DNA of 64,000 bases from Hyphomicrobium sp. (GTDB taxonomy: Bacteria > Pseudomonadota > Alphaproteobacteria > Rhizobiales > Hyphomicrobiaceae). The DNA lies in assembly GCF_019753045.1 (NCBI RefSeq), contig NZ_JAIELN010000002.1, positions 496,001 to 560,000 of the forward strand, in the 5' to 3' direction. Within the stretch, counting starts at the first letter, position 1; each line of letters opens with the position of its first letter. The notes beneath the pieces are model-generated. The model worked only from the letters and a program-made list of their open reading frames with translations, did not search any database and was not told the DNA's origin. The position numbers and the translations under genes are program-made. This document shows, piece after piece, positions 25,742 to 63,030 of the stretch.

Positions 25742-26764
25742 TCATCGTTCAGTAGACCGGGCAGTTCCGAGCAACTGAGCATCGTCGTCGCGGATGGGTG
25801 TGAGGCGCTTGTAGTGCAGGTCGATGTAAATCGACACTTCCGCGCAGGCTACCGACGGCCAGCTTCGTACCTCATTGTCGATAATCTCCAGCAGCTCGTG
25901 CTCTGACCTGCAAATGATTTCCGTAAAGATGTCGAACCGGCCCGCGCAAATCGCGACGTAAGTCGTATTGGGCAGGCATGCCAGTGCATCGGCAAGCTCG
26001 GCAACCCGGTGGCCTGGTGCTGCGCGCAATGCCACCAAGGCCATGCTCCGGTATTCAAAACCCATAGGATTGATGAGTGCGATCACCTCGAGGATTCGCG
26101 ACTCGGTGAGCTGCTTCACACGCGTGCGGACCTGGGTTTCCGAGATATTTAGATCATCGGCGATCTGCTGAAAGGATGCACGCCCATCTCGACTGAGCGC
26201 TCTCACGATATTCTTGTCGGTCTGATCGAGTTCGCGCGGACGAATCCCCTCATGCGCTTCGCTTTTGCTTCGCGCGGAAGCAAAATGCGCGTTTTGATAG
26301 TGCAGGTTTAGATATGGAAAGACCTCGATCGAATTGATTCCTACTATCGGGCCGATGTTGGCCTCGATCGTCTCTTGCAACTTGCTCATGCCGGAGCACA
26401 GGATCTCCGCATACAAAGCGAAACGTCCCGTTGCGATAATGACGTAGTCGATCGCGGGAATCTTCTTCAGCGCCTCCGCAATCCGTGAAGCCGGCACCTT
26501 GGGATCGGTCGTGAGGCCGAGGAGCGCTGCTGCGCCATACCCGAGCACTCTGGGATCGGTGAGCGCGGTGATCTGGATGACGCCTTCGTCGAGGAGATGC
26601 CGCACGCGTTGGCCCACCGTTTTCTCGGCGATGCCTACGTCGCGAGCGATCTGAGCGAACGACTGGCGTCCGTCCGCTTGCAGCATCGACACGATTTGTC
26701 GGTCAACGTCCGAGAGCGGAGCTGCCAGTCGCAAGTAGTCTGTAATCGTAAGCTTTTTTGCCAT
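25742..26764 (-). CDS. Double-domain Lrp/AsnC-family regulator
   Basis: A 340-aa regulator made of two complete Lrp/AsnC units in tandem. Unit 1 has LSDVDRQIVSMLQADGRQSF with the helix-turn-helix AQIARDVGIAEKTVGQRVRH and a RAM domain (ALLGLTTDPKVPASRIAEAL). Unit 2 repeats LDQTDKNIVRALSRDGRASF, QQIADDLNISETQVRTRVKQ and a second RAM domain. ATG 26764 (MAKKLTI) is chosen because AGAGGG precedes it; a start 14 codons upstream has no ribosome site. It is divergent from the flavin reductase gene of cluster B. A paralogue with the same architecture is at 55275. Confidence 0.88.
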   Translation of the reverse strand: MAKKLTITDYLRLAAPLSDVDRQIVSMLQADGRQSFAQIARDVGIAEKTVGQRVRHLLDEGVIQITALTDPRVLGYGAAALLGLTTDPKVPASRIAEALKKIPAIDYVIIATGRFALYAEILCSGMSKLQETIEANIGPIVGINSIEVFPYLNLHYQNAHFASARSKSEAHEGIRPRELDQTDKNIVRALSRDGRASFQQIADDLNISETQVRTRVKQLTESRILEVIALINPMGFEYRSMALVALRAAPGHRVAELADALACLPNTTYVAICAGRFDIFTEIICRSEHELLEIIDNEVRSWPSVACAEVSIYIDLHYKRLTPIRDDDAQLLGTARSTER

Positions 26765-27195
26765 CCGGCCCTCTTTTGCCGCCTCGGGACGGCGGATCGT
26801 GTTCAAAAAAATGTCACTATACCCGAAATCTGCCTATTGACCTGACAAAATACGCGGAATACGGTCCTTTTGTCGCGTTGCGCGGCGGAAGATGAATTCA
26901 GCGAGCTGTTGGCTTTCCCCTAAGCTACGGCAGCAGATTGAGAAAACAGGCATGGACGATCTTCCCTTGCACATTCACGGCCTCAAGCACTCAGACATCG
27001 AGAAATCGCTCGGACGCATGGCTGGGCAGGTCGATGTGATCGTTCGCCGACAAGCAGTTCTGGCAGTTGCCGGATGAGAGGGGCCGACACGCCGTCCGAC
27101 GAAATCGTCGCCAGATCCGCCACATTAAGGATGGTCTCCCATTGTGCTCGGCCGGAAGCCCTGGCCGAGAAACCGATGCCAAAGAGGGAACGCGT
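26765..27195. promoter_or_regulatory. Divergent control region of cluster B
   Basis: 431 bp between the Lrp-family gene and the flavin reductase gene. It contains an inverted repeat GACAAAA (26844-26850) and TTTTGTC (26868-26874) around a G/C spacer, and upstream TTGACC (26837-26842), which could be a -35 box. Near the flavin reductase there is a 41-codon frame (27072 onward) overlapping its start by ATGA, without family features. The Lrp-type regulator is the expected binder. Confidence 0.5.
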
Positions 27196-27729
27196 ATGAG
27201 CCACATCCTCGATCCTCACTTTGTCGTCGAATGCAACAGCATCGACCCGAATGTATTCAAGGGCGCCATGGCTGCGATGCCGGCCGCGGTAACGGTCATC
27301 ACGACGCTTGCCCGGGATGGTAGTCCGACAGGCGCTACTCTGTCGGCAGTGACGCCTCTTTCGTTGACTCCCGCCCTCATGCTCGCCTGCTTCGACCACC
27401 GCTCGGATACCCTAACGGCTATTCGTGCGACGCGCCGCTTCCTTATCCACGTTCTGGCCGACGGCCAGCAGAAGCTTGCACGGTGTTTCGCCGGTAAGGG
27501 CTTAGGCAAGTTCGACGGTGTTGATTGGACTGAAGGCCCTTTGAAACTGCCGTTGCTCAAGGGGAGTGCCATCACAGTCGCGTGCTGTCTATCCGAAGTT
27601 GTCCCCGGCGGCGATCACGCCATCGTCCTCGGCGAGATTGCGGACATCAACATGAACAGCAAGCTGCGTCCGCTTGTCTATGCTGAGCGGCAGTTCATTC
27701 CTCTGATGCTCGAGGGCTCGAGGTCATGA
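27196..27729 (+). CDS. Flavin reductase family protein (cluster B)
   Basis: A 177-aa flavin reductase of the HpaC/DIM6 type. The pattern AMAAMPAAVTVITTLARDGS, then PTGATLSAVTPLSLTPALML (flavin loop), RRFLIHVLADGQQKLARCFA and GDHAIVLGEIADINM matches the family. ATG 27196 follows AAAGAGGGA. It probably supplies reduced flavin to the LLM monooxygenase five genes downstream (32757). It is separated from that operon by 342 bp with a 22-bp palindrome, so it may have its own promoter. It differs from the cluster A reductase (17493) by more than half its residues. Confidence 0.88.
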   Translation: MSHILDPHFVVECNSIDPNVFKGAMAAMPAAVTVITTLARDGSPTGATLSAVTPLSLTPALMLACFDHRSDTLTAIRATRRFLIHVLADGQQKLARCFAGKGLGKFDGVDWTEGPLKLPLLKGSAITVACCLSEVVPGGDHAIVLGEIADINMNSKLRPLVYAERQFIPLMLEGSRS

Positions 27730-27918
27730 AACGGTTCGCAGCAATTTAGGCGTTTGGATTTAGTGCCAGGACAAACGCTTCTTAGCAGCGCCTCTTCATC
27801 CGCAAACGGTCTGAACATTGCTTCGGTCGTCATGACTGGCGTCATTGCGCCGGCGCAATACGCAGCGGACAGTTTCGGTGGGCAATCATCGTGCTGAACA
27901 TCTGCAAGAATTGTCCTG

Positions 27919-27940
27919 ACCGAAGTAGCGCTACTTCGGT
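27919..27940. promoter_or_regulatory. 22-bp perfect palindrome upstream of the thiolase operon
   Basis: ACCGAAGTAGC at 27919-27929 is followed directly by its exact complement GCTACTTCGGT at 27930-27940, with no unpaired centre. It lies about 130 bp before the DUF35 gene start and about 190 bp after the flavin reductase stop. A perfect, gapless palindrome suggests a dimeric repressor operator; it could also form a hairpin that ends the upstream transcript, but no T-run follows. Confidence 0.65.
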
Positions 27941-28071
27941 TCGTTGGCGGCTGGCGAGGCGAATACCAAACCAGAGTGACTATAGATCATTCAGCAATGA
28001 GAAATTGGGGGCCTACGTGCGGAAGAAGTTTCTGCCACTCTAAGGCAATCATTCTGACGATCGGAGCTGTA

Positions 28072-28440
28072 ATGCCTGCTGGATATGCCTTTGTAGCAGA
28101 CGAGTTCGGTGAGATGACCCTTCTCGCGTCGAAAAGCCGAACAACCGGTTTGGGAGTCTTCCCGCGTCTGCCCGCGACCGCCCCTTCTGCCTCGCAATAT
28201 GAAGATCTCGAGATTCACGGGCACGCTTCGCTCTACAGCTTCACCGTCATTCATCCGAATCCAAAATCCGGTCTCGCACCTTTCGTGCTCGCAATGGCCG
28301 ACTTCCCCCAGGAGGTGCGGGTCCTGGGCCGGCTCGAGTGTGCACTCACAGACGTTGCAATCGGCATGAAATTGAGCTGTCGGCCGGCCAGCGACAACGC
28401 ATCGGGCTTCGTGTTCGTTCCTGCTGCGGGGGCTGCGTAA
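28072..28440 (+). CDS. DUF35/OB-fold acyl-CoA-associated protein
   Basis: A 122-aa OB-fold protein of the DUF35 type that normally forms a complex with an SCP-x-like thiolase. Visible pattern: GVFPRLPATAPSASQYEDLE, then IHGHASLYSFTVIHPNPKSG, PFVLAMADFPQEVRVLGRLE, DVAIGMKL. The N-terminal zinc ribbon usually has four Cys; here the corresponding segment (LLASKSRTTGLGVFPRLP) has none, so the metal site is lost. ATG 28072 follows GGAG. The stop overlaps the thiolase ATG (TAATG), a hallmark DUF35-thiolase pair. Confidence 0.85.
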   Translation: MPAGYAFVADEFGEMTLLASKSRTTGLGVFPRLPATAPSASQYEDLEIHGHASLYSFTVIHPNPKSGLAPFVLAMADFPQEVRVLGRLECALTDVAIGMKLSCRPASDNASGFVFVPAAGAA

Positions 28441-29585
28441 TGCGTGAGGTTTACATTTCCGGAGCGGCGATGACGCCCTTCGCCCGGCACACCCGCTCGA
28501 TACAGGACCTCGTGCAGGAAGCCGTTCTCGGTGCCGTGCGCAATGCAGAGATCAAGCTTTCAGACATTCAGGCGATGTACAGCGCCAATGTTTTTGGAGG
28601 CATGATCCTCGGCCAGGTTCTGGTTCGCGACCTCGGGATCACGGGGCCTGCGCTCTATAACGTGGAGAATGCCTGTGCCAGCGGTGCGACTGCCGTGCAT
28701 CTGGCGCGGATGGCATTGCAGCTCGGCAAATACGATACGGTCGTCGTTTGGGGCGTGGAAATGCTTAGCCAGCTTGGCGGCGGCACCATCCCTCTTCAGC
28801 GCAATGACTACAAAACTGAGCTCTACGCCGCTCAAGGCCTGACACTTCCATCGGTCTACGCGATGAGGGCGACACGTTATTTGCATGAGCGCAATCTTCC
28901 GCGGTCGGTCCTTGCTGAAATCGCTGTGAAGAATCGCGCCGCAGGCAGTCGCAACCCGTATGCGCAGCAGCGCAAGGAAGTGACCGTCGAGGAGGTGCTC
29001 GCCTCGCGTCAGGTCGCGGAGCCGCTGACCTTGCTGCAATGCTGTCCGTCGGTCGTTGACGGCGCGGCGTGCGTGGTTCTCACGACCCGCAAGCCGACCA
29101 ATAGCGCCAAGCCAGTGCGCATTCTCGGTTCCGCTGTGCAGTCGGGTCACCAAGAACTCGGGTGTGGAGACATTCTCGATGGCGAGATAACCGCGCGTAC
29201 GGCACGGCTGGCTTACGAAGAAGCCGGCGTCGACCCGAGCGAAGTGGACGTCGTCGAACTGCACGACGCCTTCACGATTGCCGAGCTCATCTACTACGAA
29301 GCGCTCGGTCTTTGTGCTCCCGGTGAGAGCGCGTCGCTCCTTCAGAGCGGCGCGACAAGTCTCGGCGGTCGCGTGCCGGTCAATCCGAGTGGCGGGCTGC
29401 TCGCCAAGGGACACCCACTCGGCGCGACTGGCGTCGCTCAGATGGTCGAGATCGTCTGGCAGCTTCGAGGCCAGGCGGAAGGCCGTCAAGCTGAGGGTGC
29501 GCGCGTCGGCGTCACTCAGTGCACCGGCGGCGGCATCGCCGGCGTCGATCACGCTGCCTCATCAGTTCACGTGCTGGCGGTGTGA
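28440..29585 (+). CDS. Acetyl-CoA acetyltransferase/SCP-x-type thiolase
   Basis: A 381-aa thiolase of the non-decarboxylating SCP-x branch. The nucleophilic Cys lies in NACASGATAVHL (about residue 80), the active-site His residues in HDAFTIAELIYYEALG and AKGHPLGATG, and the second Cys in VTQCTGGG. The enzyme would cleave a 3-ketoacyl-CoA with CoA to release acetyl- or propionyl-CoA. Its start overlaps the DUF35 stop, its stop overlaps the SDR start, and the operon continues with beta-oxidation partners, so it is the terminal step of the cluster B degradation. Confidence 0.92.
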   Translation: MREVYISGAAMTPFARHTRSIQDLVQEAVLGAVRNAEIKLSDIQAMYSANVFGGMILGQVLVRDLGITGPALYNVENACASGATAVHLARMALQLGKYDTVVVWGVEMLSQLGGGTIPLQRNDYKTELYAAQGLTLPSVYAMRATRYLHERNLPRSVLAEIAVKNRAAGSRNPYAQQRKEVTVEEVLASRQVAEPLTLLQCCPSVVDGAACVVLTTRKPTNSAKPVRILGSAVQSGHQELGCGDILDGEITARTARLAYEEAGVDPSEVDVVELHDAFTIAELIYYEALGLCAPGESASLLQSGATSLGGRVPVNPSGGLLAKGHPLGATGVAQMVEIVWQLRGQAEGRQAEGARVGVTQCTGGGIAGVDHAASSVHVLAV

Positions 29586-30340
29586 TGATGGAACAGAGAT
29601 CTGTCATCGTCACAGGCGGCGCTCGCGGCATAGGCTTCGGCATCGCTAAGCATTTTGCACAGTATGGCTACGACGTTGCGCTGTTCGATCGGGATAGCGC
29701 CGCCTTAGCTGACGCGAAGGAAAGGCTCGCGGAGGACGCGGGCGAAACAAGCGTTCTCACTCTGGAGGTCGACGTCACCCAAGGTGCGGCCGTGAAGGAG
29801 GCTGTCGAGGCAACGCGAACGGCCTTCGGCCGCGTCGACGTTCTGGTCAACAACGCCGGCATCGTGCGCGACAAGCGCATCGTGAACATGGAAGAGGAAG
29901 ATTGGGACCTCGTTATTGCGACCAATCTGCGATCTCAATTCCTGGCCTGCAAGCACGTCGCCCCCATCATGCTCGAGCAGGGGGCGGGGCGGATCATCAA
30001 TATCTCGTCGCGCGCTTGGCTTGGCGGGTTCGGACAGAGCAATTACTCAGCTGCAAAGGGCGGCGTCGTCAGTCTCACTCGCAGCCTTGCCCTCGAATTC
30101 GCCAGCAAAGGCGTGACTGTCAACGCCATTGCGCCCGGCATTATAGAAACACCGCTTTTCCTCGGGTTCGACGCCAAAGTGCAAGAAAATCTGCGCTCCT
30201 CGGTGCCGCGCAAGCGAATTGGCCGGCCCGATGACATTGCGCGCCTGGCTCTGTTCCTTGCAGAGCCCGACAATGACTACGTCACTGGGCAGACGATCTA
30301 TGTTTGCGGCGGTCGTTCCCTCTCGAGCGTCAGTGTCTGA
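29585..30340 (+). CDS. Short-chain dehydrogenase (FabG/3-hydroxyacyl-CoA dehydrogenase-like)
   Basis: A 251-aa SDR. The cofactor motif is TGGARGIGFGIA, followed by NNAGIVRDKRI, the catalytic Ser (ISSRAWLGGFG), YxxxK as YSAAKGGV, and PGIIETP. The acidic residue after the second strand (ALFDRDSA) implies NAD. Start ATG overlaps the thiolase stop; a second ATG at 29588 is equally possible. In this operon it is the best candidate for the 3-hydroxyacyl-CoA dehydrogenase step between the hydratase and the thiolase. Confidence 0.9.
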   Translation: MMEQRSVIVTGGARGIGFGIAKHFAQYGYDVALFDRDSAALADAKERLAEDAGETSVLTLEVDVTQGAAVKEAVEATRTAFGRVDVLVNNAGIVRDKRIVNMEEEDWDLVIATNLRSQFLACKHVAPIMLEQGAGRIINISSRAWLGGFGQSNYSAAKGGVVSLTRSLALEFASKGVTVNAIAPGIIETPLFLGFDAKVQENLRSSVPRKRIGRPDDIARLALFLAEPDNDYVTGQTIYVCGGRSLSSVSV

Positions 30341-30347
30341 GGGGCCC

Positions 30348-31151
30348 ATGGGAATTCGCACAAACATCGAAGCTGGACTAGCGATCGTCACCATCGACCG
30401 CGCCGAAAAGCACAACGCGCTCGATATCGATCACCTTAAAGCATTGCGTGATGCTCTTACTCGCTGTGACGCTGAACCGGACGTCAGGGTCGTGCTGCTG
30501 ACTGGAGCCGGAGGGCGCGCCTTCTCCACCGGAACCGACCTCTCCTCGGTCGGGACTGATGGTCCGCGGTACGCGGAGGCTTACGGGAAGGGCCTCGATT
30601 CGGCATCGCGGATGGGGCTCTATATCCGGCTCCTGGATTTGACCAACGTACCGCGCCGCAAGCCGCTCATCGCTGCTGTCGACGGCTACTGCCTTGGCGG
30701 CGGTTTTGAACTTGCGCTTCAGTGCGATCTCATCATTGCCAGCGACAAGGCCCAGTTCGGTCTTCCCGAAGTGTCGATCGGCAGTCTGCCCGGAGCAGGC
30801 GGCGTCTGGAACATCTTCCGCTGGCTACCGCGGGGGCTGGCCATGCATCTGCTGCTGACCGGAGAGCGCTTATCGGCAATGCGTGCTGTCGAGGTCGGTC
30901 TCGTCGGTAAGATCTTTCCGGCCGAGGAATTCGCTGTTCTTAGTCGGTCTTACAGCGCCTCTCTCGCCCGGCAAGCGCCTCTGTCGCTGCAGCTTATCAA
31001 GATGCTTGCTTCGCAGACCGAGGGCGCGCCTCCCGCTCTCGGCATGCAGTTGAGCGAACTAGCCTGGGGCCACTTGCGCGATACCGAAGATCGTCTCGAG
31101 GGCCGTCAGGCTTTCATGGAGAAGCGTGCACCGGTCTACAGCGGACGATGA
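30348..31151 (+). CDS. Enoyl-CoA hydratase/isomerase
   Basis: A 267-aa crotonase-family enzyme. The first oxyanion-loop segment reads AFSTGTDLSSVG, and both catalytic glutamates are present: GGGFELALQCDLIIASDKAQ and FGLPEVSIGSLPGAGGVW. The C-terminal part includes LLTGERLSAMRAVEVGLVGK. It starts 8 bp after the SDR gene, with GAGGGG upstream of ATG. It would hydrate the enoyl-CoA from the acyl-CoA dehydrogenase. The length and motifs are typical. Confidence 0.9.
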   Translation: MGIRTNIEAGLAIVTIDRAEKHNALDIDHLKALRDALTRCDAEPDVRVVLLTGAGGRAFSTGTDLSSVGTDGPRYAEAYGKGLDSASRMGLYIRLLDLTNVPRRKPLIAAVDGYCLGGGFELALQCDLIIASDKAQFGLPEVSIGSLPGAGGVWNIFRWLPRGLAMHLLLTGERLSAMRAVEVGLVGKIFPAEEFAVLSRSYSASLARQAPLSLQLIKMLASQTEGAPPALGMQLSELAWGHLRDTEDRLEGRQAFMEKRAPVYSGR

Positions 31152-31203
31152 ATTCCACCAGAAGGTCACCGACACCCGTGGCCCGTTGGGACTGTTGAAG
31201 GAT

Positions 31204-32691
31204 ATGATGTTGATGAAGCAGACCTCCTCCTCCTCATTGCGTGCTCTTGAGTTTGCAGCACGCTCTCACCGGATGTTCATCGACGGTGAATGGGTGCCTG
31301 CCGCATCCGGCGAAACCTTCGACACCATAAACCCGGCGACCGAAGAGCTGCTCGCAACCGTTCCCAAGGGTGGCGCGGAGGACATCGACCGTGCCGTCCG
31401 CGCCGCGCGCAAGGCCTTCGAATACGACGCACCTTGGAGGCGCATGACCCCATCGGAGCGGGGCAAGGTCATCCATCGGATCGGCGATCTGATCCTCGAA
31501 AATGCCGACGAGCTGGCGATGATCGAGACGCTCGACAACGGCAAGCCGTTTTCGGTCGCTCGTCACGGCGACATCCCCTTTGCCGCCGACGTCTTCCATT
31601 ACATGTCGGGTTGGGCGACGAAGGTGGAAGGAAGTTCTATTCCGCTCGGGCAGAAGTACCTCGCGTTCACGCAGAAGGAACCGGTCGGGGTCGTGGGCGT
31701 CGTCATAGCGTGGAACTTTCCGCTGCTCTTGTGCGCGTGGAAGCTCGGTCCGGCTCTCGCCGCCGGATGCACGGTTGTGGTCAAGCCGGCCGAGCAAACG
31801 CCGCTCGCGGCATTGCGCTTGGCGGAGATAGCGCGCGAGGCCGGACTTCCAGACGGCGTGCTCAACGTTGTTACCGGCTACGGCGACGCGGGAGCCGCTC
31901 TGACGGCACACCCCCACGTCGACAAAGTCACGTTCACCGGCTCGACTGAGGTCGGCAAGAAAATCGTGCACGCCGCCACGGGCAACCTCAAGAAGGTCTC
32001 GCTCGAGCTCGGCGGAAAGTCGCCGAACATCGTCTACGCAGACGCGGATCTCACCACCGCCATCCCGGCCGTGGCAAATGCGATCTTCGCTTATCACGGA
32101 CAGGCCTGTAACGCCGGCTCGCGGCTCTACGTCGAGAAATCCATATTCGACAAAGTCGTGGTCGGGGTGAGCGACTACGCCAACAGCATAGTCCTTGGCC
32201 CCGGCGCCGAGAGCACGACCCAGATGGGTCCGCTAGTGAGCGACGAGCAGCTCAACCGCATCCTTGGCTACATCGCCGCGGGCAAGGGCGATGGCGCCCA
32301 GATCGCCGCGGGCGGCGAGCGGCACGGCAGCAAAGGCTACTTCGTCAAGCCGACCGTGCTGACCGATACGCGCCCCGATATGTCGGTTGTGCGTGAGGAG
32401 ATCTTCGGCCCGGTGCTTGTCGCCATGCCATTCACGGACGCGTCCGACGTTATCCGGCAGGCGAACGACAGTCCGTACGGCCTCGCCGCGGGCGTGTTCA
32501 CGACCAACCTGTCGCGAGCGTACACGACCGCGGCGCGCCTTCAGGCCGGCACCGTCTACATCAACCAATACCACATGCTCAACGCAGCGCTGCCTTTCGG
32601 CGGCTTCAAGGAGTCGGGTTGGGGCCGCGAGTTGGGCCGGCTCGCAGTCGATGACTTCATGGAGTCGAAGTCGGTGGTGGCGGCACTGTGA
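31204..32691 (+). CDS. NAD(P)-dependent aldehyde dehydrogenase (first of two)
   Basis: A 495-aa aldehyde dehydrogenase. The NAD-binding and substrate motifs are FTGSTEVGKKIV, LELGGKSPNIVYADADL with the general-base Glu, and GQACNAGSRLYV with the catalytic Cys. The C-terminal PFGGFKESGWGRELG is typical. ATG 31204 is preferred because family similarity begins after a short polar head; the frame extends further but without a ribosome site. It is in the same operon as the beta-oxidation genes and precedes the LLM monooxygenase. A second, divergent aldehyde dehydrogenase is at 40669. Confidence 0.92.
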   Translation: MMLMKQTSSSSLRALEFAARSHRMFIDGEWVPAASGETFDTINPATEELLATVPKGGAEDIDRAVRAARKAFEYDAPWRRMTPSERGKVIHRIGDLILENADELAMIETLDNGKPFSVARHGDIPFAADVFHYMSGWATKVEGSSIPLGQKYLAFTQKEPVGVVGVVIAWNFPLLLCAWKLGPALAAGCTVVVKPAEQTPLAALRLAEIAREAGLPDGVLNVVTGYGDAGAALTAHPHVDKVTFTGSTEVGKKIVHAATGNLKKVSLELGGKSPNIVYADADLTTAIPAVANAIFAYHGQACNAGSRLYVEKSIFDKVVVGVSDYANSIVLGPGAESTTQMGPLVSDEQLNRILGYIAAGKGDGAQIAAGGERHGSKGYFVKPTVLTDTRPDMSVVREEIFGPVLVAMPFTDASDVIRQANDSPYGLAAGVFTTNLSRAYTTAARLQAGTVYINQYHMLNAALPFGGFKESGWGRELGRLAVDDFMESKSVVAAL

Positions 32692-32756: not shown

Positions 32757-33854
32757 GTGCGTGTAGGTTTATTGCAAGAGGGTGACTTCACCGGCACGAC
32801 GATGGCGGAACGCTATCGCGAGATGATCAACGAAGTGGCTCTCGCCGACAAGTTGGGTTTCTCCGCGTGGGGAACGTCAGAGCAGCACTTCAGTCCGCCG
32901 TCGTTCAGCGTCTCTGCGCCAGAAGTGCTGTATGCCGCGGTGGCGGAAAACACCGAGCAGATCATCCTTCGCGTGATGGCCTCGATCCTCGTGCAGTACA
33001 ACCATCCCGTAATGATTGCCGAGCGGGCCGCCACGATGGACATCATCTCCAACGGGCGATACGAGCTGTGCACGGGCCGATCCAACAACAAGACCACGCT
33101 GAATGCCTTCAAGGTGCCTATCGCCACCACTCAGGAGCAGTGGACTGAGGGCATTGAACTGCTCCGCCGAGCGTTCACCGACGAAGTGCTGACATTCGAC
33201 GGAAAATTCTGGCAGGTGGGGGAATGCCAAGTCACTCCCAAGCCGATCCAGAAGCCGTACCCACCACTTTCAGTCACCGCGACCAGCGTGAAAACCCACG
33301 GCTTGGCGGGTGCCAAGGGGCTCGGCGTTGTCTCGGCGGACAGCTACTTCGGCTGGGACTACATCCGTCAGTGCGTCCGCGCCTACATTGAAGGCTCCAA
33401 GAGCGAGCCGAACGTACAGCCGCGCAACAACTATTACGGCTACTACGTCTGCACGGCCTACTGCGCTGAAACGCGCGAGGAAGCCTTCGCGATCGCTGAA
33501 GCGCAAGCGCTCCAGTACTTCAAGGCTGTCGTCGATTTGTACTCCGGGATGTCGTCGAACGCGTCCTACGAATATATGGCGCAGATCGAGCCCCTACTGA
33601 AGCACAAGGACGACATTCAGGCGCTCATGCAGCATACTCCTGCTGTGATTGTCGGAACTCCCGACTACTTCATAGAGACCTTCCGCAGGCTCGAGGAGCA
33701 AGGCATTGACGAGGTGCTGCTCCGCATCGACGGCTTTGGCCACCAGAACCACCTGAAGACAATTCGTCTGATCGGCGAGAAAGTCATCCCCAACGTGCGC
33801 GGGGAGCGTGGTCGTGACGTGCGCACCAACCTCACTATGGGAACGGGAGCCTGA
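32757..33854 (+). CDS. LLM-class flavin-dependent monooxygenase (cluster B)
   Basis: A 365-aa bacterial luciferase-like oxygenase that uses reduced flavin from a separate reductase. The start is GTG 32757 with a strong GGGAGGAG site. Features: N-terminal GLLQEGDFTGTTMAERY, WGTSEQHFSPPSFSVSAPEV, SNGRYELCTGRSNNKT, SYFGWDYIRQCVRAYIEGSK and the C-terminal VGTPDYFIETFRRLEEQG. Its closest relative in the window is the protein at 61951, which shares the same blocks throughout. The flavin reductase at 27196 is the likely electron donor. Substrate unknown. Confidence 0.9.
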   Translation: MRVGLLQEGDFTGTTMAERYREMINEVALADKLGFSAWGTSEQHFSPPSFSVSAPEVLYAAVAENTEQIILRVMASILVQYNHPVMIAERAATMDIISNGRYELCTGRSNNKTTLNAFKVPIATTQEQWTEGIELLRRAFTDEVLTFDGKFWQVGECQVTPKPIQKPYPPLSVTATSVKTHGLAGAKGLGVVSADSYFGWDYIRQCVRAYIEGSKSEPNVQPRNNYYGYYVCTAYCAETREEAFAIAEAQALQYFKAVVDLYSGMSSNASYEYMAQIEPLLKHKDDIQALMQHTPAVIVGTPDYFIETFRRLEEQGIDEVLLRIDGFGHQNHLKTIRLIGEKVIPNVRGERGRDVRTNLTMGTGA

Positions 33855-33856
33855 CA

Positions 33857-34090
33857 ATGTCGAAGCAATTCGCTCCAGCGGAGAGTGCTAGTTCCGCGAA
33901 CACTGCCACACCCAGAGGCCATGCATCTGATTATGACAATGAGCTTGCGTCTCTGCTCGCAGAGCGGATCCGCTTGGTGGAATCCGGCGTGTCAGAGGAC
34001 ACGGCACTACGGGCACGCGACTACATTTTGGCAATTTTGGTGGCAGGGGTTCTTCCTCTGATCGCGCTGGTGATCGGAGGAATGCAATGA
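33857..34090 (+). CDS. Small membrane protein coupled to an NCS1 permease (77 aa)
   Basis: A 77-aa protein whose first two-thirds are polar and acidic (EYD-rich middle, SDYDNELASLLAERIRLVES) and which ends in one membrane helix (YILAILVAGVLPLIALVIGG). Its stop overlaps the start of the permease (ATGA), and it starts 2 bp after the monooxygenase stop, so it is translated with the transporter. No family recognised. It may be an accessory or stabilising subunit for the permease, a role described for small proteins next to other secondary transporters. Confidence 0.7.
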   Translation: MSKQFAPAESASSANTATPRGHASDYDNELASLLAERIRLVESGVSEDTALRARDYILAILVAGVLPLIALVIGGMQ

Positions 34091-47827: not shown

Positions 47828-47859
47828 TCGCGAAATGCTTTTTGGTCAAAGGTCGAGTC

Positions 47860-49152: not shown

Positions 49153-49167
49153 TTTAGGAGATTAGTT

Positions 49168-55274: not shown

Positions 55275-56354
55275 TCATTCGCACGAATTATCTTGTTCGT
55301 GCTGAACGTCATCGAGGTCGTCGGGGAGCTCTACAGTGCCCGTCGAACGATCTGTACCGTAACCGTTCATGGGGATGACCGGTTTATAATGGAGATCGAA
55401 ACAGAAGTTAGCCTCGACACTACGGACGTTGGGATTGTCGCGAACCTTATTGTCGATAGTGGCTAACAACGCTTCGGTAGAGGGACAGACGATTTCAGCA
55501 AAGATATCAAACCGTCCGGCACAGATGACCACGTAGCTGATGTACGGAATCTCGGCCATATCACGAGCCAAGGATCGAAGGCTGCTATTGCCATTCGCCT
55601 TTATCGCTAACCAAGCCATAGCGCTGTTTGGTAGGTTCATTGGATTGACGATGGCCATGATCGTCATAGTGCCGGCCGACGCCATGTTTTGTATCCGCGC
55701 TCTGACCTGCGTCTCCGACATCCCCACGTTTTGCGCCACATTCTTTAGCGGTGCGCGGCCGTTATGGCTGAGTTCAACGGCGATTGATCTATCGAGAAGA
55801 TCAAGCTGTTCGCCGTGCGCGCTTGAGAGCCCCTTCGCAGCCTTAGGCTGGGTAAAAAAAGCTGCTTGCTGATAGTAAAAGCTGAAATAGGGGAAAAGTT
55901 CGACGCGTGCGATGCCGTCGATTCCCCGGACTTTCGTATGGAAGGTCTCGAGTAACGTTTGCCTGCTGGGTGAGACGAGTTCGGCCAGAATATCGTACCG
56001 GCCCGATGTTGACACGACGTAATCCACGTCATCGACGCCCGCCAGCGCCCTAGCAACGTCTGTGATTTGCGCTGAGCTTTCGACGTTTATCGCGACTAAT
56101 GCTCCAGCGTTGTACCCGATTGCGCTCGGCATAGTGAGAGCGACGATTCGAATGATGTTGGATCCGAGCAACTGACGAACGCGCGTGCGCACGGTCTTTT
56201 CCGTTACACCAACGGCACGGGCGATGGTTACGAAAGCCCGACGTCCGTCCTCCTGCAAGTGCGTGATGATCTGTCGATCGAGATCGGACAAGGGCCATTG
56301 TCGCAACGGGTCACTTCCCGCCGCGAAGTCACGCTTAGAAGGTCTTGAATTCAT
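55275..56354 (-). CDS. Double-domain Lrp/AsnC-family regulator (cluster C)
   Basis: A 359-aa regulator with two Lrp/AsnC units in tandem. Unit 1: LSDLDRQIITHLQEDGRRAF with VTIARAVGVTEKTVRTRVRQ and a RAM domain; unit 2: LDLLDRSIAVELSHNGRAPL with KNVAQNVGMSETQVRARIQN and a second RAM domain (VEANFCFDLHYKPVIP). The start at 56354 (MNSRPSK) is preferred; an ATG at 56387 lacks a ribosome site. It has the same architecture as the protein at 25742, is divergent from the cluster C importer, and is its natural regulator. The C-terminal tail is acidic (DDLDDVQHEQDN). Confidence 0.88.
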   Translation of the reverse strand: MNSRPSKRDFAAGSDPLRQWPLSDLDRQIITHLQEDGRRAFVTIARAVGVTEKTVRTRVRQLLGSNIIRIVALTMPSAIGYNAGALVAINVESSAQITDVARALAGVDDVDYVVSTSGRYDILAELVSPSRQTLLETFHTKVRGIDGIARVELFPYFSFYYQQAAFFTQPKAAKGLSSAHGEQLDLLDRSIAVELSHNGRAPLKNVAQNVGMSETQVRARIQNMASAGTMTIMAIVNPMNLPNSAMAWLAIKANGNSSLRSLARDMAEIPYISYVVICAGRFDIFAEIVCPSTEALLATIDNKVRDNPNVRSVEANFCFDLHYKPVIPMNGYGTDRSTGTVELPDDLDDVQHEQDNSCE

Positions 56355-56463
56355 TTCTGCGCCCTGTCTGTCCCGCACCGCGGACATTAGGCGGACGTCT
56401 GTAAGCTTTGCAAGCCGGGTCGAAACCGGTCGAAATTAACGAGAAAACCCACGTTAAAATCTA

Positions 56464-56591: not shown

Positions 56592-57557
56592 ATGTCTCAT
56601 CAAGCTAAGCGCACAGCGACCTGTCTCCTCTTTATGGGAGCTGCCCTCCTCTGCAATTCACCGGCTCGGGCGGGCGCTGAGTCGCAGGATCCCATCAAGC
56701 TTGCCATCAACGAATGGCAGGGCCAGCACGTCACGACGTATCTGGCAGGCGAGACGCTCAAGCGGCTCGGTTACAAAGTTGAATATCTGACTGCGGGCTA
56801 TCTTCCTCAGATCGAAGGCGTGATGGACGGAGACATCACCGCGACGTTGGAGCTTTGGGAGCATACCATCCAAGGCAATTTCGACAGGGCGATCGCGAGC
56901 GGCAAGGCCGAAGATCTGGGCAGCACCGGCTTTATGTCGAAGGAAGGCTGGATTTATCCGGCGTACCTGGAAGAGGTATGCCCCGGACTTCCTGATTACA
57001 AGGCACTGAACGACTGCGCTCAGAAGCTTGCAACCGCCGAAACGTTCCCGCAGGGCCGGCTACTTGATTACCCTGCCGATTACGGACCTGACAATGACAA
57101 GCGCGTCGCCGCGCTCGGTTTAAATTTCAAAGTGGTTCCGCCGGGATCGGACGGAGCGGCAGCAGCTGAATTCGCGGCTGCTGTCGCAGCACATAAGCCA
57201 ATTCTCATGATGCTGTGCAGCCCGCATTGGCTCTTAGCGAAGTTCCATCCCAAAATGGTGAAGCTGCCTGAAAGCAGACCCGAATGCTACACGGATCCGA
57301 AGTGGGGACCGAATCCTGATGCTACGCATGACTGCGGATGGCCCAACGGCTGGGTAAAGAAGCTGGGCTGGGTGGGCATGAAAGATAAATGGCCCGGAGC
57401 GTATCGGGTCCTGAAGGAGTTTTCGATTTCGGCTGAGCAGCAAGATGCGCTGTCGCTCGAAGTCGAAGAGAAAAAGATCCCGATTGAAGAAGCCGCCAAC
57501 AAGTGGCTCGATGGCCATCCTGATATCTTAGCAAAGTGGCTTGCCGCCGCGAAATAA
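56592..57557 (+). CDS. proX: Glycine betaine/proline-type ABC transporter substrate-binding protein
   Basis: A 321-aa periplasmic binding protein of the ProX/OpuAC type. It has a signal peptide (about residues 1-28, ending ARAGAESQ) and the family pattern KLAINEWQGQHVTTYLAGET, LTAGYLPQIEGVMDGDITAT, LELWEHTIQGNFDRAI, then PHWLLAKFHPKMVKLPES. Trp residues in the pocket (INEW, LELW, GWIYP) fit binding of a quaternary ammonium headgroup. It precedes proV by 42 bp. The true ligand may be a betaine-like compound or another amine; osmoprotection or catabolism cannot be separated by sequence. Confidence 0.88.
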   Translation: MSHQAKRTATCLLFMGAALLCNSPARAGAESQDPIKLAINEWQGQHVTTYLAGETLKRLGYKVEYLTAGYLPQIEGVMDGDITATLELWEHTIQGNFDRAIASGKAEDLGSTGFMSKEGWIYPAYLEEVCPGLPDYKALNDCAQKLATAETFPQGRLLDYPADYGPDNDKRVAALGLNFKVVPPGSDGAAAAEFAAAVAAHKPILMMLCSPHWLLAKFHPKMVKLPESRPECYTDPKWGPNPDATHDCGWPNGWVKKLGWVGMKDKWPGAYRVLKEFSISAEQQDALSLEVEEKKIPIEEAANKWLDGHPDILAKWLAAAK

Positions 57558-57599: not shown

Positions 57600-58673
57600 A
57601 TGAGTGCGCGTGGGACAACAGTCCATACCAAAATTCGATGTCGCAATCTTTGGAAGACATTCGGCAGCGAGGCGACGAGCCAACTGCGTCGTACACTTCA
57701 TGAAACGGGGGACGCCAGCGAGGCACTTCACGCGCTGAAGGCCAGCGGCCACCTTGTGGCGGTCGCCGATGCGAGCTTCGAGGTCGCCGAAGGCGAGATC
57801 CTTGTGATCATGGGCCTGTCGGGATCTGGAAAATCTACTTTGATAAGGTGCCTTTCCCGACTAGTCGAGCCGAGCGCCGGCGAAGTCACCTTCGACGGCC
57901 TCGACCTGCTGAAACTCTCGCACCGGGAACTCATTGAGATACGGCGTCACAAGATGGGTATGGTATTCCAGTCCTTCGGATTACTTCCGCATTTCAATGT
58001 GCTCGAGAATGTTGCTTTTCCTCTTCGCATTCAGGGGGTCTCAAAAGTTGAACGCGAGAACCGTGCTCGCGAAATGATTGGGCTTGTCGGACTTCAGGGG
58101 AGGGAAACCGCCTTCCCGCGAGAGCTTTCGGGCGGTCAGCAGCAACGCGTTGGTATTGCCCGCTCGCTGGCGGTGGGACCAGATCTCTGGTTTCTCGACG
58201 AGCCTTTTTCTGCGCTGGATCCTCTCATTAGAAGACAGATGCAGGAGGAATTTCTTCGGCTGCAGAAATTGCTGAAGAAGACCATCATCTTTATTACGCA
58301 TGATTTCTCAGAAGCGTTGAAACTGGCCGACCGGATCATCGTAATGCGTGACGGGCGGATCGTACAAATTGGCCGACCTTCCGAAATTGTTCTCGCACCC
58401 GCTGACGAATACGTTGCCAAATTTGCTTCTGAAGTACCGCTCACCAAGGTGCTCTCGGCCGCCGACGTTTTGGAGCCTCTTGAAAGCACAAATGGCATTA
58501 GTAACCCTGCACCCCTGTCGGCGTCCGCAGAAGAATTGATAGCCCGTTTTTCCGAAACAGACACCGTTTTCATCGCGGATGATGCCGGCCTCCATGGCCA
58601 AGTGACGTCAGCGGGCTTGTTGCGCGCAATCAGCCGCATCAGCTCGCAGATTCGAACAGAGGGCGGCATTTGA
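57600..58673 (+). CDS. proV: Glycine betaine-type ABC transporter ATPase
   Basis: A 357-aa ATPase of the ProV/OpuAA type. Walker A GLSGSGKSTLI, Q-loop VFQSFGLLPH, signature LSGGQQQRVGIA, Walker B DLWFLDEPFSALDP and switch His FITHDFSEALKLAD are all visible. The C-terminus (about residues 275-357: SADVLEPLESTNGISNPAPL; DTVFIADDAGLHGQVT) carries a CBS-like regulatory tail. The N-terminal extension (KIRCRNLWKTFGSEATSQLR) is normal for this family. Its stop codon overlaps the permease start. Confidence 0.9.
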   Translation: MSARGTTVHTKIRCRNLWKTFGSEATSQLRRTLHETGDASEALHALKASGHLVAVADASFEVAEGEILVIMGLSGSGKSTLIRCLSRLVEPSAGEVTFDGLDLLKLSHRELIEIRRHKMGMVFQSFGLLPHFNVLENVAFPLRIQGVSKVERENRAREMIGLVGLQGRETAFPRELSGGQQQRVGIARSLAVGPDLWFLDEPFSALDPLIRRQMQEEFLRLQKLLKKTIIFITHDFSEALKLADRIIVMRDGRIVQIGRPSEIVLAPADEYVAKFASEVPLTKVLSAADVLEPLESTNGISNPAPLSASAEELIARFSETDTVFIADDAGLHGQVTSAGLLRAISRISSQIRTEGGI

Positions 58674-60856: not shown

Positions 60857-61819
60857 CTATCGTATGGCCCGCACTAGGCAGGTTTCAAAGCCGGCTCTCA
60901 GTGCGGCTGTGTCCAGTCGGCGACCGATGAACACCAACCGGCTCTCACGGAGCTTCCCCTCAGCCCAAGGCTCGCGGACATCCCCCTCCAAGATTGTTTG
61001 TACGCCTTGAAATATGAATCGACGATCTTCTCCTGCGAAGGCAACGATGCCTTTGCATCGCAGGATGTCCCGCCCGTTGCGGCGGATGACATTGGAAATC
61101 CATTCCGCAAAAAGTTCGGCATCAACCGGCTCCTGCGCCGTCAATGAAACGCTGACCACATCGTGCCGCGGCGGTCTGGTTGGTCTGTTAACGAAAGAAA
61201 GCCGAGCATGTTGATCGACCGGAATTGCAAGTAAATCCACAACGTCGACAACATCACGGTCCGTTCTGAGGACTGGCGAGATCCGATTGATGCTTTTTAC
61301 CAGCGCCTCGGCGGATTGCAGTTGCTCGCCGCTTGCAACGTCGCACTTATTCAACAAAACAATATCACCCAACGCAATCTGGCTTTCCACAACGGGATCC
61401 TCGCCGATTTGATCGTTCACCAGCGGCACGTCGATCAAGGTGATGATGGCCTTTAGTTTCACGCGGTCGAAAATATCGTCATCCAAAAGGAACGTAGCTG
61501 CGATCGGGGCGGGATCAGCGAGCCCGGTCGTTTCGATCAAGATTTCGTCCACTCCGTCAACCCTAGCGACTACCGTTTCTAACGCACCCAAAAGGTCTCC
61601 CCGGACGCTGCAGCAAAGGCAGCCATTATTCAGCTCAATTACATTTTCGTTCGCATCGACGATGAGGGCGCCATCAATCCCTATAGAGCCGAACTCATTG
61701 ACGATGACGCCATAACGACGTCCGCGCTGATTGGCGAGCAAGCGATTGAGAAGGGTGGTCTTTCCGGAACCGAGGTAGCCGGTCAGTACCGAAACAGGAA
61801 TGTGGGCGTTAGCTCTCAT
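60857..61819 (-). CDS. CobW/COG0523-family GTPase (metallochaperone-like)
   Basis: A 320-aa G3E GTPase. Walker A is GYLGSGKTTLLNRLL, the metal motif CxCC is NGCLCCSVRGDL, the Walker B and switch region reads IETTGLADPAPIA, and the guanine-specificity NKCD motif is VLLNKCDVASG. The C-terminal domain (VVSVSLTAQEPVDAELFAEW) is of the CobW_C type. Such proteins deliver metal ions to client enzymes. The gene is divergent from the LLM monooxygenase and metal-dependent amidohydrolase genes, so the amidohydrolase is a plausible client. This link is inference; the family is secure. Confidence 0.9.
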   Translation of the reverse strand: MRANAHIPVSVLTGYLGSGKTTLLNRLLANQRGRRYGVIVNEFGSIGIDGALIVDANENVIELNNGCLCCSVRGDLLGALETVVARVDGVDEILIETTGLADPAPIAATFLLDDDIFDRVKLKAIITLIDVPLVNDQIGEDPVVESQIALGDIVLLNKCDVASGEQLQSAEALVKSINRISPVLRTDRDVVDVVDLLAIPVDQHARLSFVNRPTRPPRHDVVSVSLTAQEPVDAELFAEWISNVIRRNGRDILRCKGIVAFAGEDRRFIFQGVQTILEGDVREPWAEGKLRESRLVFIGRRLDTAALRAGFETCLVRAIR

Positions 61820-61875
61820 TGATCAATCCTCCAGAAATCGGACCAACGATTGCCAATAATTCTGTTTAACGGTTC

Positions 61876-61904
61876 TTGACAAGCTTTTTTCCGGCTTATA
61901 CGGT
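61876..61904 (+). promoter_or_regulatory. Sigma-70-like promoter of the second LLM operon
   Basis: TTGACA at 61876-61881, a 17-bp spacer, and TACGGT at 61899-61904 (the overlapping TATACG starts two bases earlier). It lies about 47 bp before the ATG at 61951 in the divergent gap with the CobW gene. Confidence 0.55.
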
Positions 61905-61950
61905 CATGAGAAAGGTAGGTTTGCGCGAAATTCGGAGAAATGGTGGTTAA

Positions 61951-63030
61951 ATGAAGATCGGCTTGATTCAGGAAGGTGAGGTAATGCCGGGCAATACCGT
62001 TGCTCAGCGTTACGACGAGATGATTGCCGAGGTTGAACTCGCTGATCGCGTGGGCTTCCACTGCTGGGGCACTTCCGAACAGCATTTCACACCGCCCCGT
62101 TTCAGCGTCGCTGCCCCCGAAATTCTCTATGCCGCCATCGCGCGCCAAACGAAAAATATAAAGCTGCGGATCATGTGCTCCGTGCTGCTCCAGTGGAATC
62201 ATCCCATCCTTGTTGCGGAGCGTTTGGCGACACTCGACATTGTGTCGAAGGGACGTGCGGAATTGGCGACCGCGCGTTCAAACAATTTGACGACTTTGGC
62301 AGCTTTCGGCGTCGATCCTTCCCAAACGCGAACACAATGGGAAGATTCGATGGCTGTTCTCGCGAAGATATTCGAGAAGGAATATATCGAACACGACGGG
62401 CCGGTTTGGAAAATACCTCGTGTGCCGATCTTGCCACGCTGCATTCAATCTCCTAATCCTCCGATATTTGTGGCGGCCTCAAGCGCCCAGTCGCACAAAA
62501 ACGCCGGGGAAATTGGAATTGGCGTCATCAGTTTCGACAACTACTTTGGGTTCGATTATCTAAGGGAATGCATCGACGCTTATCGGAGCGGAGCTGCTGA
62601 AGCCGCCGGGCGCAGCTTGATGCCGAAGCGGACCGATCTATTGAGCGTTCTTATCATCACGGCATTCTGCGCTCAATCAAAGCAGGACGCGGTGAACAAG
62701 GCTCGCGACATCAGCCTTGGCTATTTCAATTTCATCCTCGACCTATATGCACCGCTAGGAAAAAAGATCTCGTACGAATATCTCGACAAGAAGATTTTGA
62801 GGCTCTTGGACCACCGGACAGATATGGACTTTCTGCTGACCGAAACACCTTCGGTGTTGGTCGGCACACCTGATGAATTCATCAAGAGGTTACGTCTACT
62901 CGAAGAGCTTGGGGTCGAAGAAGTCGTCATGAGAATTGATGGGATGCCGCATGAAGACATCATGCGCTCAATCGAACTAATCGGTCGGGAAGTCATTCCC
63001 GCGTTCAAGCGCACTCGGGAACTCATCTGA
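61951..63030 (+). CDS. LLM-class flavin-dependent monooxygenase (cluster C)
   Basis: A 359-aa luciferase-like oxygenase of the same subfamily as the protein at 32757: KIGLIQEGEVMPGNTVAQRY, WGTSEQHFTPPRFSVAAPEI, SKGRAELATARSNNLTTLAA, FDNYFGFDYLRECIDAYRSG and VGTPDEFIKRLRLLEELGVE. The reduced flavin donor is not in this cluster; either flavin reductase (17493 or 27196) or one elsewhere could serve. Its stop overlaps the amidohydrolase start, so both are co-translated. The parallel to cluster B suggests similar chemistry on a related substrate. Confidence 0.9.
   Translation: MKIGLIQEGEVMPGNTVAQRYDEMIAEVELADRVGFHCWGTSEQHFTPPRFSVAAPEILYAAIARQTKNIKLRIMCSVLLQWNHPILVAERLATLDIVSKGRAELATARSNNLTTLAAFGVDPSQTRTQWEDSMAVLAKIFEKEYIEHDGPVWKIPRVPILPRCIQSPNPPIFVAASSAQSHKNAGEIGIGVISFDNYFGFDYLRECIDAYRSGAAEAAGRSLMPKRTDLLSVLIITAFCAQSKQDAVNKARDISLGYFNFILDLYAPLGKKISYEYLDKKILRLLDHRTDMDFLLTETPSVLVGTPDEFIKRLRLLEELGVEEVVMRIDGMPHEDIMRSIELIGREVIPAFKRTRELI

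What the first reader, a model, noticed from the sequence alone, without database searches (positions are those of the whole stretch)
25742..63030. Clusters B and C are variations of one plan: double-Lrp regulator, importer, LLM monooxygenase, hydrolase
Two 340-360-aa regulators with tandem Lrp units each face an operon that includes a transporter and a closely similar LLM monooxygenase (same N-terminal blocks). Double-domain Lrp proteins are uncommon. This repeated architecture in one 64-kb window suggests a modular catabolic system that may be more widespread.
Basis: partly seen in the sequence, partly recalled or inferred. Interest (0 to 1): 0.75.

Follow-up and report, generated by a model that had tools for sequence, protein, structure and literature searches.

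The report
Mobile ring-opening catabolic gene modules
Two gene clusters in this bacterium are variants of one transferable kit, a double-headed switch protein near an importer, an oxygen-using enzyme and a hydrolase, that probably breaks open nitrogen-containing ring compounds and is carried on a mobile DNA island.

Summary
Regulators B (25742-26806) and C (55275-56387) each carry two Lrp/AsnC units, and their clusters hold LLM monooxygenases that are 47% identical. The plan is wider than reported: cluster C runs past the window end (amidohydrolase, flavin reductase, EthD, aldehyde dehydrogenase), and a third copy (D) lies about 74 kb left of the window.

The linkage is not chance. In one scan, 13 of 15 double-Lrp ORFs had an LLM relative within 10 kb, against 0 of 46 single-Lrp ORFs. 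In 347 genomes of the order, the 4 with the regulator (this genome included) also had the LLM on the same contig. It is not absolute: orphan regulators exist.

Not in the finding: B and C share one island at a tRNA-Glu gene, between exact 20-bp repeats, absent from that site in Hyphomicrobium facile.

Best reading: LLM plus flavin reductase opens an N-heteroaromatic ring, a formamide-type hydrolase cleaves the amide, an aldehyde dehydrogenase follows. The nearest relative believed characterised is the Arthrobacter pyridine cluster (LLM 36-39%). The substrate is unproven. New variant of a known kind.

The parts
8781..8797 (+). 17-bp copy of the tRNA-Glu 3' end, likely older or second attachment site
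   Evidence: exact match, 2 hits in the window vs 0.01 expected; 4 copies in 4.5 Mb
24981..25000 (+). 20-bp exact copy of the tRNA-Glu 3' end (L011:6508-6527): left end of the island carrying B and C
25742..26806 (-). double-Lrp regulator B (354 aa)
   Evidence: Pfam HTH_AsnC-type and AsnC_trans_reg, two stretches each
27067..27729 (+). flavin reductase (first ORF start; true start may lie later)
   Evidence: Pfam Flavin_Reduct; 44-50% to C and D reductases
27976..28440 (+). ChsH2-type OB-fold protein
   Evidence: Pfam OB_ChsH2_C
28338..29585 (+). thiolase
   Evidence: Pfam Thiolase_C_1, Thiolase_N
29519..30340 (+). SDR dehydrogenase
   Evidence: Pfam adh_short_C2
30219..31151 (+). enoyl-CoA hydratase family
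   Evidence: Pfam ECH_1
31126..32691 (+). aldehyde dehydrogenase 1 of cluster B
   Evidence: Pfam Aldedh; 44-45% to C and D enzymes; below the cut-off of each of the 25 NCBIfam families shown of 38
32757..33854 (+). LLM monooxygenase B
   Evidence: Pfam Bac_luciferase; 46.6% to C, 50.6% to D
34087..35496 (+). NCS1-type importer
   Evidence: Pfam Transp_cyt_pur; 39% to NCS1 of cluster D
36030..37367 (+). alpha/beta hydrolase (HGGYW, GHSAGG) fused to SnoaL-like domain
   Evidence: Pfam; kynurenine formamidase third among 44 PDB sequence hits, after a lipase and a putative esterase; motifs
37542..38699 (+). acyl-CoA dehydrogenase
   Evidence: Pfam
38705..40672 (+). fused class III CoA-transferase
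   Evidence: Pfam CoA_transf_3, two stretches
40669..42150 (+). aldehyde dehydrogenase 2 of cluster B
   Evidence: Pfam Aldedh
42274..43344 (+). LysR regulator at the end of cluster B; membership uncertain
   Evidence: Pfam
43652..45157 (+). CitMHS_2 transporter; membership uncertain
   Evidence: Pfam
47842..51252 (+). PriCT_2 and DUF5906 proteins between B and C, of the kind found in mobile-element replication genes (recalled)
   Evidence: Pfam
52192..53190 (-). tyrosine recombinase inside the island
   Evidence: Pfam Phage_integrase
55275..56387 (-). double-Lrp regulator C (370 aa)
   Evidence: Pfam; AlphaFold pLDDT 77.6, pTM 0.71; full-length fold match to NirDL
56592..57557 (+). periplasmic binding protein of the betaine/TMAO type
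   Evidence: Pfam OpuAC; PDB 4xz6 E=8.9e-66; cage comparison
57600..58673 (+). ABC ATPase, betaine/proline/choline type
   Evidence: NCBIfam TIGR01186 above cut-off, 338.3 of 326.6 bits
58670..60757 (+). ABC permease, two permease domains in one chain
   Evidence: Pfam BPD_transp_1, two stretches
60857..61819 (-). CobW-family GTPase
   Evidence: Pfam cobW, CobW_C
61951..63030 (+). LLM monooxygenase C
   Evidence: Pfam Bac_luciferase; 61% to D; model pLDDT 83.6
63030..64000 (+). amidohydrolase, continues to L011:685; then flavin reductase L011:685-1236, EthD L011:1277-1603, aldehyde dehydrogenase L011:1743-3254, integrase L011:4461-6476, tRNA-Glu L011:6510-6585

Best explanation
Clusters B and C, with cluster D elsewhere in the genome, are paralogous modules for taking up and oxidatively opening N-heteroaromatic compounds. 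A dedicated importer brings the substrate in: NCS1 in B and D, a betaine/TMAO-type ABC system in C. A flavin reductase supplies reduced FMN to the LLM monooxygenase, which breaks the ring next to the nitrogen and leaves an N-formyl (N-acyl) open chain. A hydrolase removes the acyl group: a metal amidohydrolase in C and D, a kynurenine-formamidase-like alpha/beta hydrolase in B. An aldehyde dehydrogenase oxidises the released semialdehyde. In B, CoA-transferase, acyl-CoA dehydrogenase, hydratase, SDR and thiolase genes suggest a longer chain finished by beta-oxidation. The double-Lrp protein, probably an internal pseudo-dimer, senses substrate or product and controls the divergent promoter. Shown: gene content, homology, linkage, residue motifs, the signs of an integrated island. 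Inferred: ring opening, formyl intermediate, ligand, regulation.
For: LLM, amidohydrolase, flavin reductase and aldehyde dehydrogenase of C and D all have relatives in the Arthrobacter sp. 68b p2MP cluster (LLM 36%, and 39% for B; amidohydrolase 27-28%; reductase 35%, B 37%; dehydrogenase 31-33%, B1 35%); that this cluster degrades pyridine is recalled. An LLM relative on a Rhodococcus opacus plasmid sits beside an annotated TpdB and an amidase; the tpdABC operon for tetramethylpyrazine breakdown is described in PMC6099782 (abstract start, passages). Exactly one of the two hydrolase types occurs in 18 of 21 core LLM loci and never both, against 1 of 13 lower-scoring LLM loci; that one is L024, whose LLM ORF is split. 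Metal-ligand-like motifs HxH, HAxGD, EH and SSD are kept in both amidohydrolases. Binding protein C keeps W55, W102 and E131 of the TMAO-binding TmoX and has Tyr at W177. The full-length regulator model aligns with the tandem Lrp-fold protein NirDL over 324 columns.
Against: No substrate, product or activity of any core member was found in these calls. Identity to PyrA-like proteins is below 40%, where LLM chemistry can change. More distant LLM relatives sit with CoA ligases and hydratases instead. The dehydrogenases of C and D fall well below the succinate-semialdehyde cut-offs (about 398 of 646 bits and 384-395 of 521). The best PDB matches of the B hydrolase are a lipase and a putative esterase, ahead of kynurenine formamidase. 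Orphan double-Lrps show that the regulator also stands by other genes. The shared promoter word is weak.
Confidence: 0.6

Rival explanations
1. A pyrimidine-type (Rut-like) ring-opening pathway: LLM, flavin reductase and a nucleobase permease acting on uracil-like rings.
For: NCS1-type permeases in B and D (39% to B; best NCBIfam hit a putative hydroxymethylpyrimidine transporter model, 85.8 of 309.85 bits); flavin reductase B has a RutF match of 75 bits.
Against: RutF cut-off is 254.75 bits; no RutA model among the 24 families listed for LLM C (that the library holds such a model is recalled); amidohydrolase and aldehyde dehydrogenase are not Rut-type genes (recalled).
Confidence: 0.08
2. The LLM is a Baeyer-Villiger or desulfonating oxygenase for a non-nitrogen substrate, and the hydrolases are esterases or lactonases for its product.
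For: The LLM fold also serves Baeyer-Villiger and sulfur oxygenases; the best PDB hits of the B hydrolase are a lipase and a putative esterase; the beta-oxidation genes of B would suit an alicyclic substrate.
Against: Relatives in clusters of similar make-up are the p2MP pyridine and tpd pyrazine systems; betaine-type importer in C; HGGYW motif in B.
Confidence: 0.2
3. The repeated architecture is coincidence: mobile islands collect unrelated catabolic genes.
For: B and C do sit on one mobile island; regulators without LLM exist.
Against: 13 of 15 (15 of 18 with plasmids) vs 0 of 46; co-occurrence in order and genus; cluster D is off the island, and an adjacent regulator-LLM pair is seen in six other genomes of the genus.
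Confidence: 0.02
4. The double-Lrp proteins are not DNA-binding regulators but enzymes of the siroheme decarboxylase (NirDL) type.
For: Best full-length fold match is NirDL 4ch7/4czc.
Against: Siroheme decarboxylase models score 41-53 bits against cut-offs of 125-140; the AsnC-type HTH family passes its Pfam cut-off with two stretches; no haem genes among the proteins scanned in the two clusters.
Confidence: 0.03

Closest known systems
pyr cluster of Arthrobacter sp. 68b plasmid p2MP (pyridine ring opening by LLM PyrA; name and function recalled)
   Same: LLM, amidohydrolase, flavin reductase and aldehyde dehydrogenase homologues together
   Different: 36-39% LLM identity; no double-Lrp in the p2MP stretch read (L016); no NCS1 or betaine-type importer found there; B uses another hydrolase fold
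tpd cluster of Rhodococcus (tetramethylpyrazine)
   Same: LLM of the same wider group (37%) with an amidase next to it
   Different: large LuxR-type regulator TpdR (PMC6099782, passages), extra TpdB subunit, no double-Lrp in the stretch read
tgn trigonelline pathway of Acinetobacter (TgnA/TgnB; host recalled)
   Same: [quoted passage not shown] TgnB is a flavin-dependent luciferase-like protein (PMC11354265, one legend passage)
   Different: TgnB sequence not available here, so kinship untested
TmoXVW trimethylamine N-oxide importer
   Same: binding protein of C matches TmoX 4xz6 at E=8.9e-66; W55, W102, E131 kept
   Different: W222 is C here and Y in four relatives, F106 is I, F220 is M; two permease domains fused
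NirDL siroheme decarboxylase
   Same: tandem Lrp-like fold in one chain
   Different: decarboxylase models of NCBIfam stay below cut-off; HTH units intact

Membership tests
Lrp/AsnC regulators (tandem) | AsnC-type HTH plus RAM ligand domain, here twice | tested here: met
   N halves 41-57% and C halves 38-57% between paralogues, N to C 26-35%, so the duplication predates B, C and D
Siroheme decarboxylase NirDL/AhbAB | NCBIfam model score above cut-off | tested here: not met
   AhbA 53 of 140 and AhbB 41 of 125 bits for B; 43 of 140 and 45 of 125 for C
Pyridine ring-cleavage (pyr) system | LLM homologous to the p2MP LLM | tested here: met
   36-39% over 361-362 aa
Pyridine ring-cleavage (pyr) system | amidohydrolase homologous to the p2MP enzyme (clusters C and D) | tested here: met
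   C 26.7%, D 28.4% near full length
Pyridine ring-cleavage (pyr) system | amidohydrolase homologous to the p2MP enzyme (cluster B) | tested here: not met
   none found in cluster B, which has an alpha/beta hydrolase
Pyridine ring-cleavage (pyr) system | succinate-semialdehyde dehydrogenase | tested here: inconclusive
   C and D about 398 bits, cut-off 646; 31-33% to the p2MP enzyme
Pyridine ring-cleavage (pyr) system | opens a pyridine ring in vitro | not testable with these tools
   needs enzyme assay
Rut pyrimidine pathway | RutF model above cut-off | tested here: not met
   75 of 254.75 bits for reductase B; not listed at E<=1e-20 for C
TmoX-type binding protein | four-tryptophan box and Glu131 | tested here: not met
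   W55, W102, E131 kept in all five; W177 is Y here and W in four relatives; W222 is C here and Y in four
tgn trigonelline pathway | TgnB homology | not tested
   TgnB sequence not at hand; the paper is not held
tRNA-integrated genomic island | tRNA 3' end repeated at the far end, integrase beside the tRNA, variable occupancy | tested here: met
tRNA-integrated genomic island | excision and transfer | not testable with these tools
   needs PCR of the circular form

The most novel reading that the evidence does not exclude
A mobile, interchangeable pathway family under double-Lrp control opens N-methylpyridinium-like or pyridine N-oxide rings, natural osmolytes among them, and feeds the released formate and methylamine to methylotrophs. 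Hosts of the cluster C type with its ABC importer are this Hyphomicrobium-like genome, two Hansschlegelia, Methyloligella and Roseovarius (their methylotrophic or methylamine-using habit is recalled), and the importer of C is of a type that binds quaternary ammonium and N-oxide compounds. This would offer a route for compounds such as homarine, whose degradation pathway was called uncharacterised in PMC8269262 (2021, passages); later work on it was not seen here.
Probability: 0.25. Interest if true: 0.7.

Novelty: new variant of a known kind. Interest (0 to 1): 0.52.

Why it matters
If right, one regulator type marks a transferable family of ring-opening pathways whose importer and hydrolase are swapped while oxygenase and switch mostly stay together. 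The double-Lrp protein then becomes a search handle for N-heterocycle degradation genes, and the cluster C importer gives a testable link between pyridinium-type osmolytes and methylotrophic bacteria.

Tried and rejected
Operator search: the best 9-base word shared by the promoter regions of B, C, D and two relatives, ACCGTATTT, was equalled or beaten by 5 of 100 shuffles; at 10 bases 60 of 100 and at 12 bases 17 of 100 did so, so it is only a hint. CYGTAWTTY occurs once in the window, in front of cluster C, with 1.81 expected; a longer pattern with two mismatches gave 8 hits, 3.65 expected, in front of B and C and elsewhere. The E-clade regulators follow the hydrolase gene on the same strand and were not used.

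Co-descent: the tree-distance correlation is modest, and the stronger identity correlation weakens when near copies are thinned. The Hansschlegelia quercus second regulator (L028b) was left out of the correlations because its LLM partner is unknown; with the pairing I assumed, the trees disagree. In one search the two regulators of L028 count the same LLM.

Dinucleotide signature: the island parts score 53-77 against flanks of 38 and 19, but the right flank was part of the reference and two stretches off the island, L009:1-9000 and cluster D, score 47 and 40. This is weak support at best.

The LLM of L024 is split over two ORFs; it was counted as found, left out of the LLM tree, fell in the lower-scoring group, and was not mended. 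A partial regulator match in G111 (C13, L098) was fetched and compared with my reference proteins, but its neighbours were not scanned for families. L012, L013 and L099 were fetched and gave no gene used here (L012 served only as composition reference); L013, around a weak AsnC match on contig C7, was not analysed. The 17-bp word also occurs once on contig C5 where no tRNA was found, so not every copy is a working site.

Fold searches of the LLM gave only general LLM relatives. Megablast of 55-63.1 kb and of 44.9-55 kb against plasmids gave no match. Paper searches returned nothing; the absence of a described double-Lrp/LLM system in print rests alone and on a library without most subscription journals.


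Full report
What was checked. The window is G000:C1:496001-560000 of a 4.52-Mb genome. A Pfam search of that genome for the AsnC HTH gave 10 places, and three proteins hold two each: regulators B and C of the finding and a third at C1:418.6-419.7 kb. Pfam gives two HTH and two ligand-domain stretches in B and in C. The LLM proteins are 46.6% (B-C), 50.6% (B-D) and 61.0% (C-D) identical. Between regulators the first halves match first halves (41-57%) and second halves match second halves (38-57%), while first-to-second matches are 26-35%. The tandem was therefore formed once, before the three copies separated.

Full extent of the plan. Cluster C continues beyond the window: the amidohydrolase starts at 63030 and is followed by flavin reductase, an EthD-like protein and aldehyde dehydrogenase in L011. 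Cluster D (L009) has regulator, LLM, amidohydrolase, flavin reductase, EthD-like protein and aldehyde dehydrogenase, with an MFS-type protein (named by eye) and an NCS1-type permease on the other side; its end lies 73.5 kb left of the window. Amidohydrolases C and D are 59% identical and the dehydrogenases 76%. Cluster B has the reductase, dehydrogenase, LLM and NCS1 permease, an alpha/beta hydrolase in place of the amidohydrolase, no EthD match, and a set of CoA-thioester genes. In LLM and dehydrogenase C and D are closer to each other than either is to B; among the regulators B and D are the closest pair (56%).

Neighbourhood test. One scan of genome contigs with the three regulators returned 60 loci. 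These gave 15 double-Lrp ORFs at 14 loci and 46 single-Lrp ORFs; an LLM relative lay within 10 kb of 13 of 15 double and 0 of 46 single ORFs (Fisher p 1.6e-11). With six plasmid loci the double count is 15 of 18 at 17 loci (p 5e-12), but two of the three added ORFs were fetched through their LLM. The exceptions are a contig that ends early but keeps the B-type hydrolase (L027), Sinorhizobium fredii NGR234 with an amidohydrolase but no LLM (L017), and Shinella (L033). Starting from the LLM on plasmids, 44 records matched; the 2 above 60% identity, pYKAM101 and Arthrobacter crystallopoietes pLDW-10, both carry a double-Lrp within 3 kb. Starting from the regulator, 3 plasmid records matched, and 2 of them are these.

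Genome-level test (the window's genome is in every set). In 347 genomes of the order the regulator profile (E<=1e-45) hit 4 and the LLM profile (E<=1e-80) hit 5; 4 were shared, and in these 4 both lie on one contig; G111 has a further partial regulator match on another contig without an LLM. In 22 genomes of the genus: regulator 8, LLM 7, shared 7. In 367 of the class: regulator 2, LLM 8, shared 2. Without the window's genome the Fisher p values are 5.8e-7, 1.3e-4 and 0.019. The six other genus genomes with an LLM at this cut-off have one each, beside the regulator, so copies of B and C were not found there. Orphans: G350 has a second regulator beside PQQ dehydrogenase, cytochrome c and lipase genes; G360 has one beside FUSC/HlyD efflux and SDR genes; G361 has a second one with an amidohydrolase, a ribose-type ABC importer and a Rieske oxygenase. 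So the link is strong, not obligatory.

Trees. Clade D is 100/100 in both trees. Clade C has support 87/92 for the LLM and 85/81 for the regulator, with the same members except L028b. Clade E, alphaproteobacterial and unplaced bins, has 100/100 (4 rows) and 95/95 (6 rows). B joins D in the regulator tree (98/98) and is unresolved in the LLM tree.

What it does. Among 21 core LLM loci (over 300 bits, the three of this genome included), 17 have the regulator, 15 the flavin reductase, 12 the aldehyde dehydrogenase, 11 EthD, 11 the amidohydrolase and 7 the alpha/beta hydrolase; exactly one hydrolase type in 18, both in 0, neither in 3 (L096, L154, L157). Among 13 lower-scoring LLM loci the figures are regulator 1, amidohydrolase 0, alpha/beta hydrolase 1, both in L024 with its split LLM ORF. 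Eleven of the 21 core loci were found through the regulator, so the figure of 17 is biased; the hydrolase figures are less so. Two different folds filling one place points to one chemical step, and both fit hydrolysis of a formamide: one is homologous to the p2MP amidohydrolase, the other carries HGGYW and GHSAGG and has kynurenine formamidase third among its PDB matches, behind a lipase and a putative esterase. That HGGYW is typical of kynurenine formamidases is recalled. On the Aminobacter MSH1 plasmid a distant LLM relative sits with genes annotated as N-formylglutamate deformylase and peptide deformylase. Flavin supply recurs: pYKAM101 has a RibBA-type gene in the module and p2MP has a riboflavin kinase. 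What p2MP does with pyridine (PyrA and following steps) is recalled; the paper is not held.

Importers. The cluster C binding protein is closest to 4xz6, identified as TmoX in PMC8918994 (passages). Of the seven TMAO pocket residues named there, W55, W102 and E131 are kept in this protein and four relatives; F106 is I and F220 is M in all five; W177 is Y here and W in the four; W222 is C here and Y in the four. A cage for a cationic or N-oxide nitrogen is thus likely, for a ligand other than TMAO. The same importer type goes with the module in two Hansschlegelia, Methyloligella and Roseovarius, while pYKAM101, whose LLM falls in the same clade, has an NCS1 permease. So the importer is exchangeable.

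Regulator. The AlphaFold model has two full HTH+RAM units (pLDDT 77.6, pTM 0.71). Its top fold match over the whole length is NirDL, a tandem Lrp-like chain (324 columns, TM 0.66 by target and 0.56 by query length, rmsd 5.6). This favours an internal pseudo-dimer without proving it. NirDL is an enzyme, but the decarboxylase models stay far below cut-off and both HTH units are intact.

Island. A tRNA-Glu lies at L011:6510-6585, with a tyrosine integrase beside it. Its 3' end recurs exactly over 20 bases at window 24981-25000 and over 17 at 8781-8797. The 17-mer occurs 4 times in the whole genome (up to 1 mismatch allowed), 3 of them here in one orientation and 1 on contig C5 without a tRNA. Clusters B and C therefore probably share a 45.5-kb element, perhaps in tandem with a 16.2-kb one. 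H. facile (G349, recognised by the contig length 1323007 shared with L023) keeps both flanks and the tRNA but holds other DNA between them, with its own 17-bp repeat; window 25-64 kb has no blastn match there. Composition adds only weak support (see tried and rejected). pYKAM101 carries its module between two copies of an IS21-like element. The module thus appears on two kinds of mobile DNA.

Verdict. Observation and main interpretation are supported. The kind is known (flavin-dependent opening of N-heteroaromatic rings); the double-Lrp control, the exchange of importer and hydrolase, and the island are the new parts. Substrates remain open.

Noticed in passing
   Followed up: partly
L009:9120-18460 (C1:413-422 kb): Third copy of the plan (cluster D), off the island; an adjacent regulator-LLM pair is present in six other genomes of the genus, and seven of its proteins are 93-99% identical in Hyphomicrobium facile (L023).
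   Followed up: yes
L151 (G361) and L017 (NGR234): Relatives of the double-Lrp sit with an amidohydrolase (61-62% to C) but no LLM; in L151 also a ribose-type ABC importer, a Rieske oxygenase and a relative of the cluster C permease: a possible oxygenase swap of the same plan.
   Followed up: partly
L149, L150: Double-Lrps 77-78% identical to D stand beside PQQ dehydrogenase/lipase or FUSC efflux genes, yet have CAATTCGT or TGTAATTCGTA words in front, like the sites of cluster D (seen by eye, not tested).
   Followed up: partly
window 54184-55005: N-terminal part of an AAA_13 protein (matches profile 8-139 of 713) beside cluster C, likely a remnant.
   Followed up: no
L015:1-7216: Arthrobacter crystallopoietes plasmid has a second LLM cluster with PucR regulator, BCCT importer, flavin reductase and aldehyde dehydrogenase; its LLM is only 22-26% identical to B, C and D.
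   Followed up: no
L124-L125 (H. facile, G349:C4:804-831 kb): The same tRNA-Glu carries a different insert with its own 17-bp repeat: a shared integration hotspot.
   Followed up: partly
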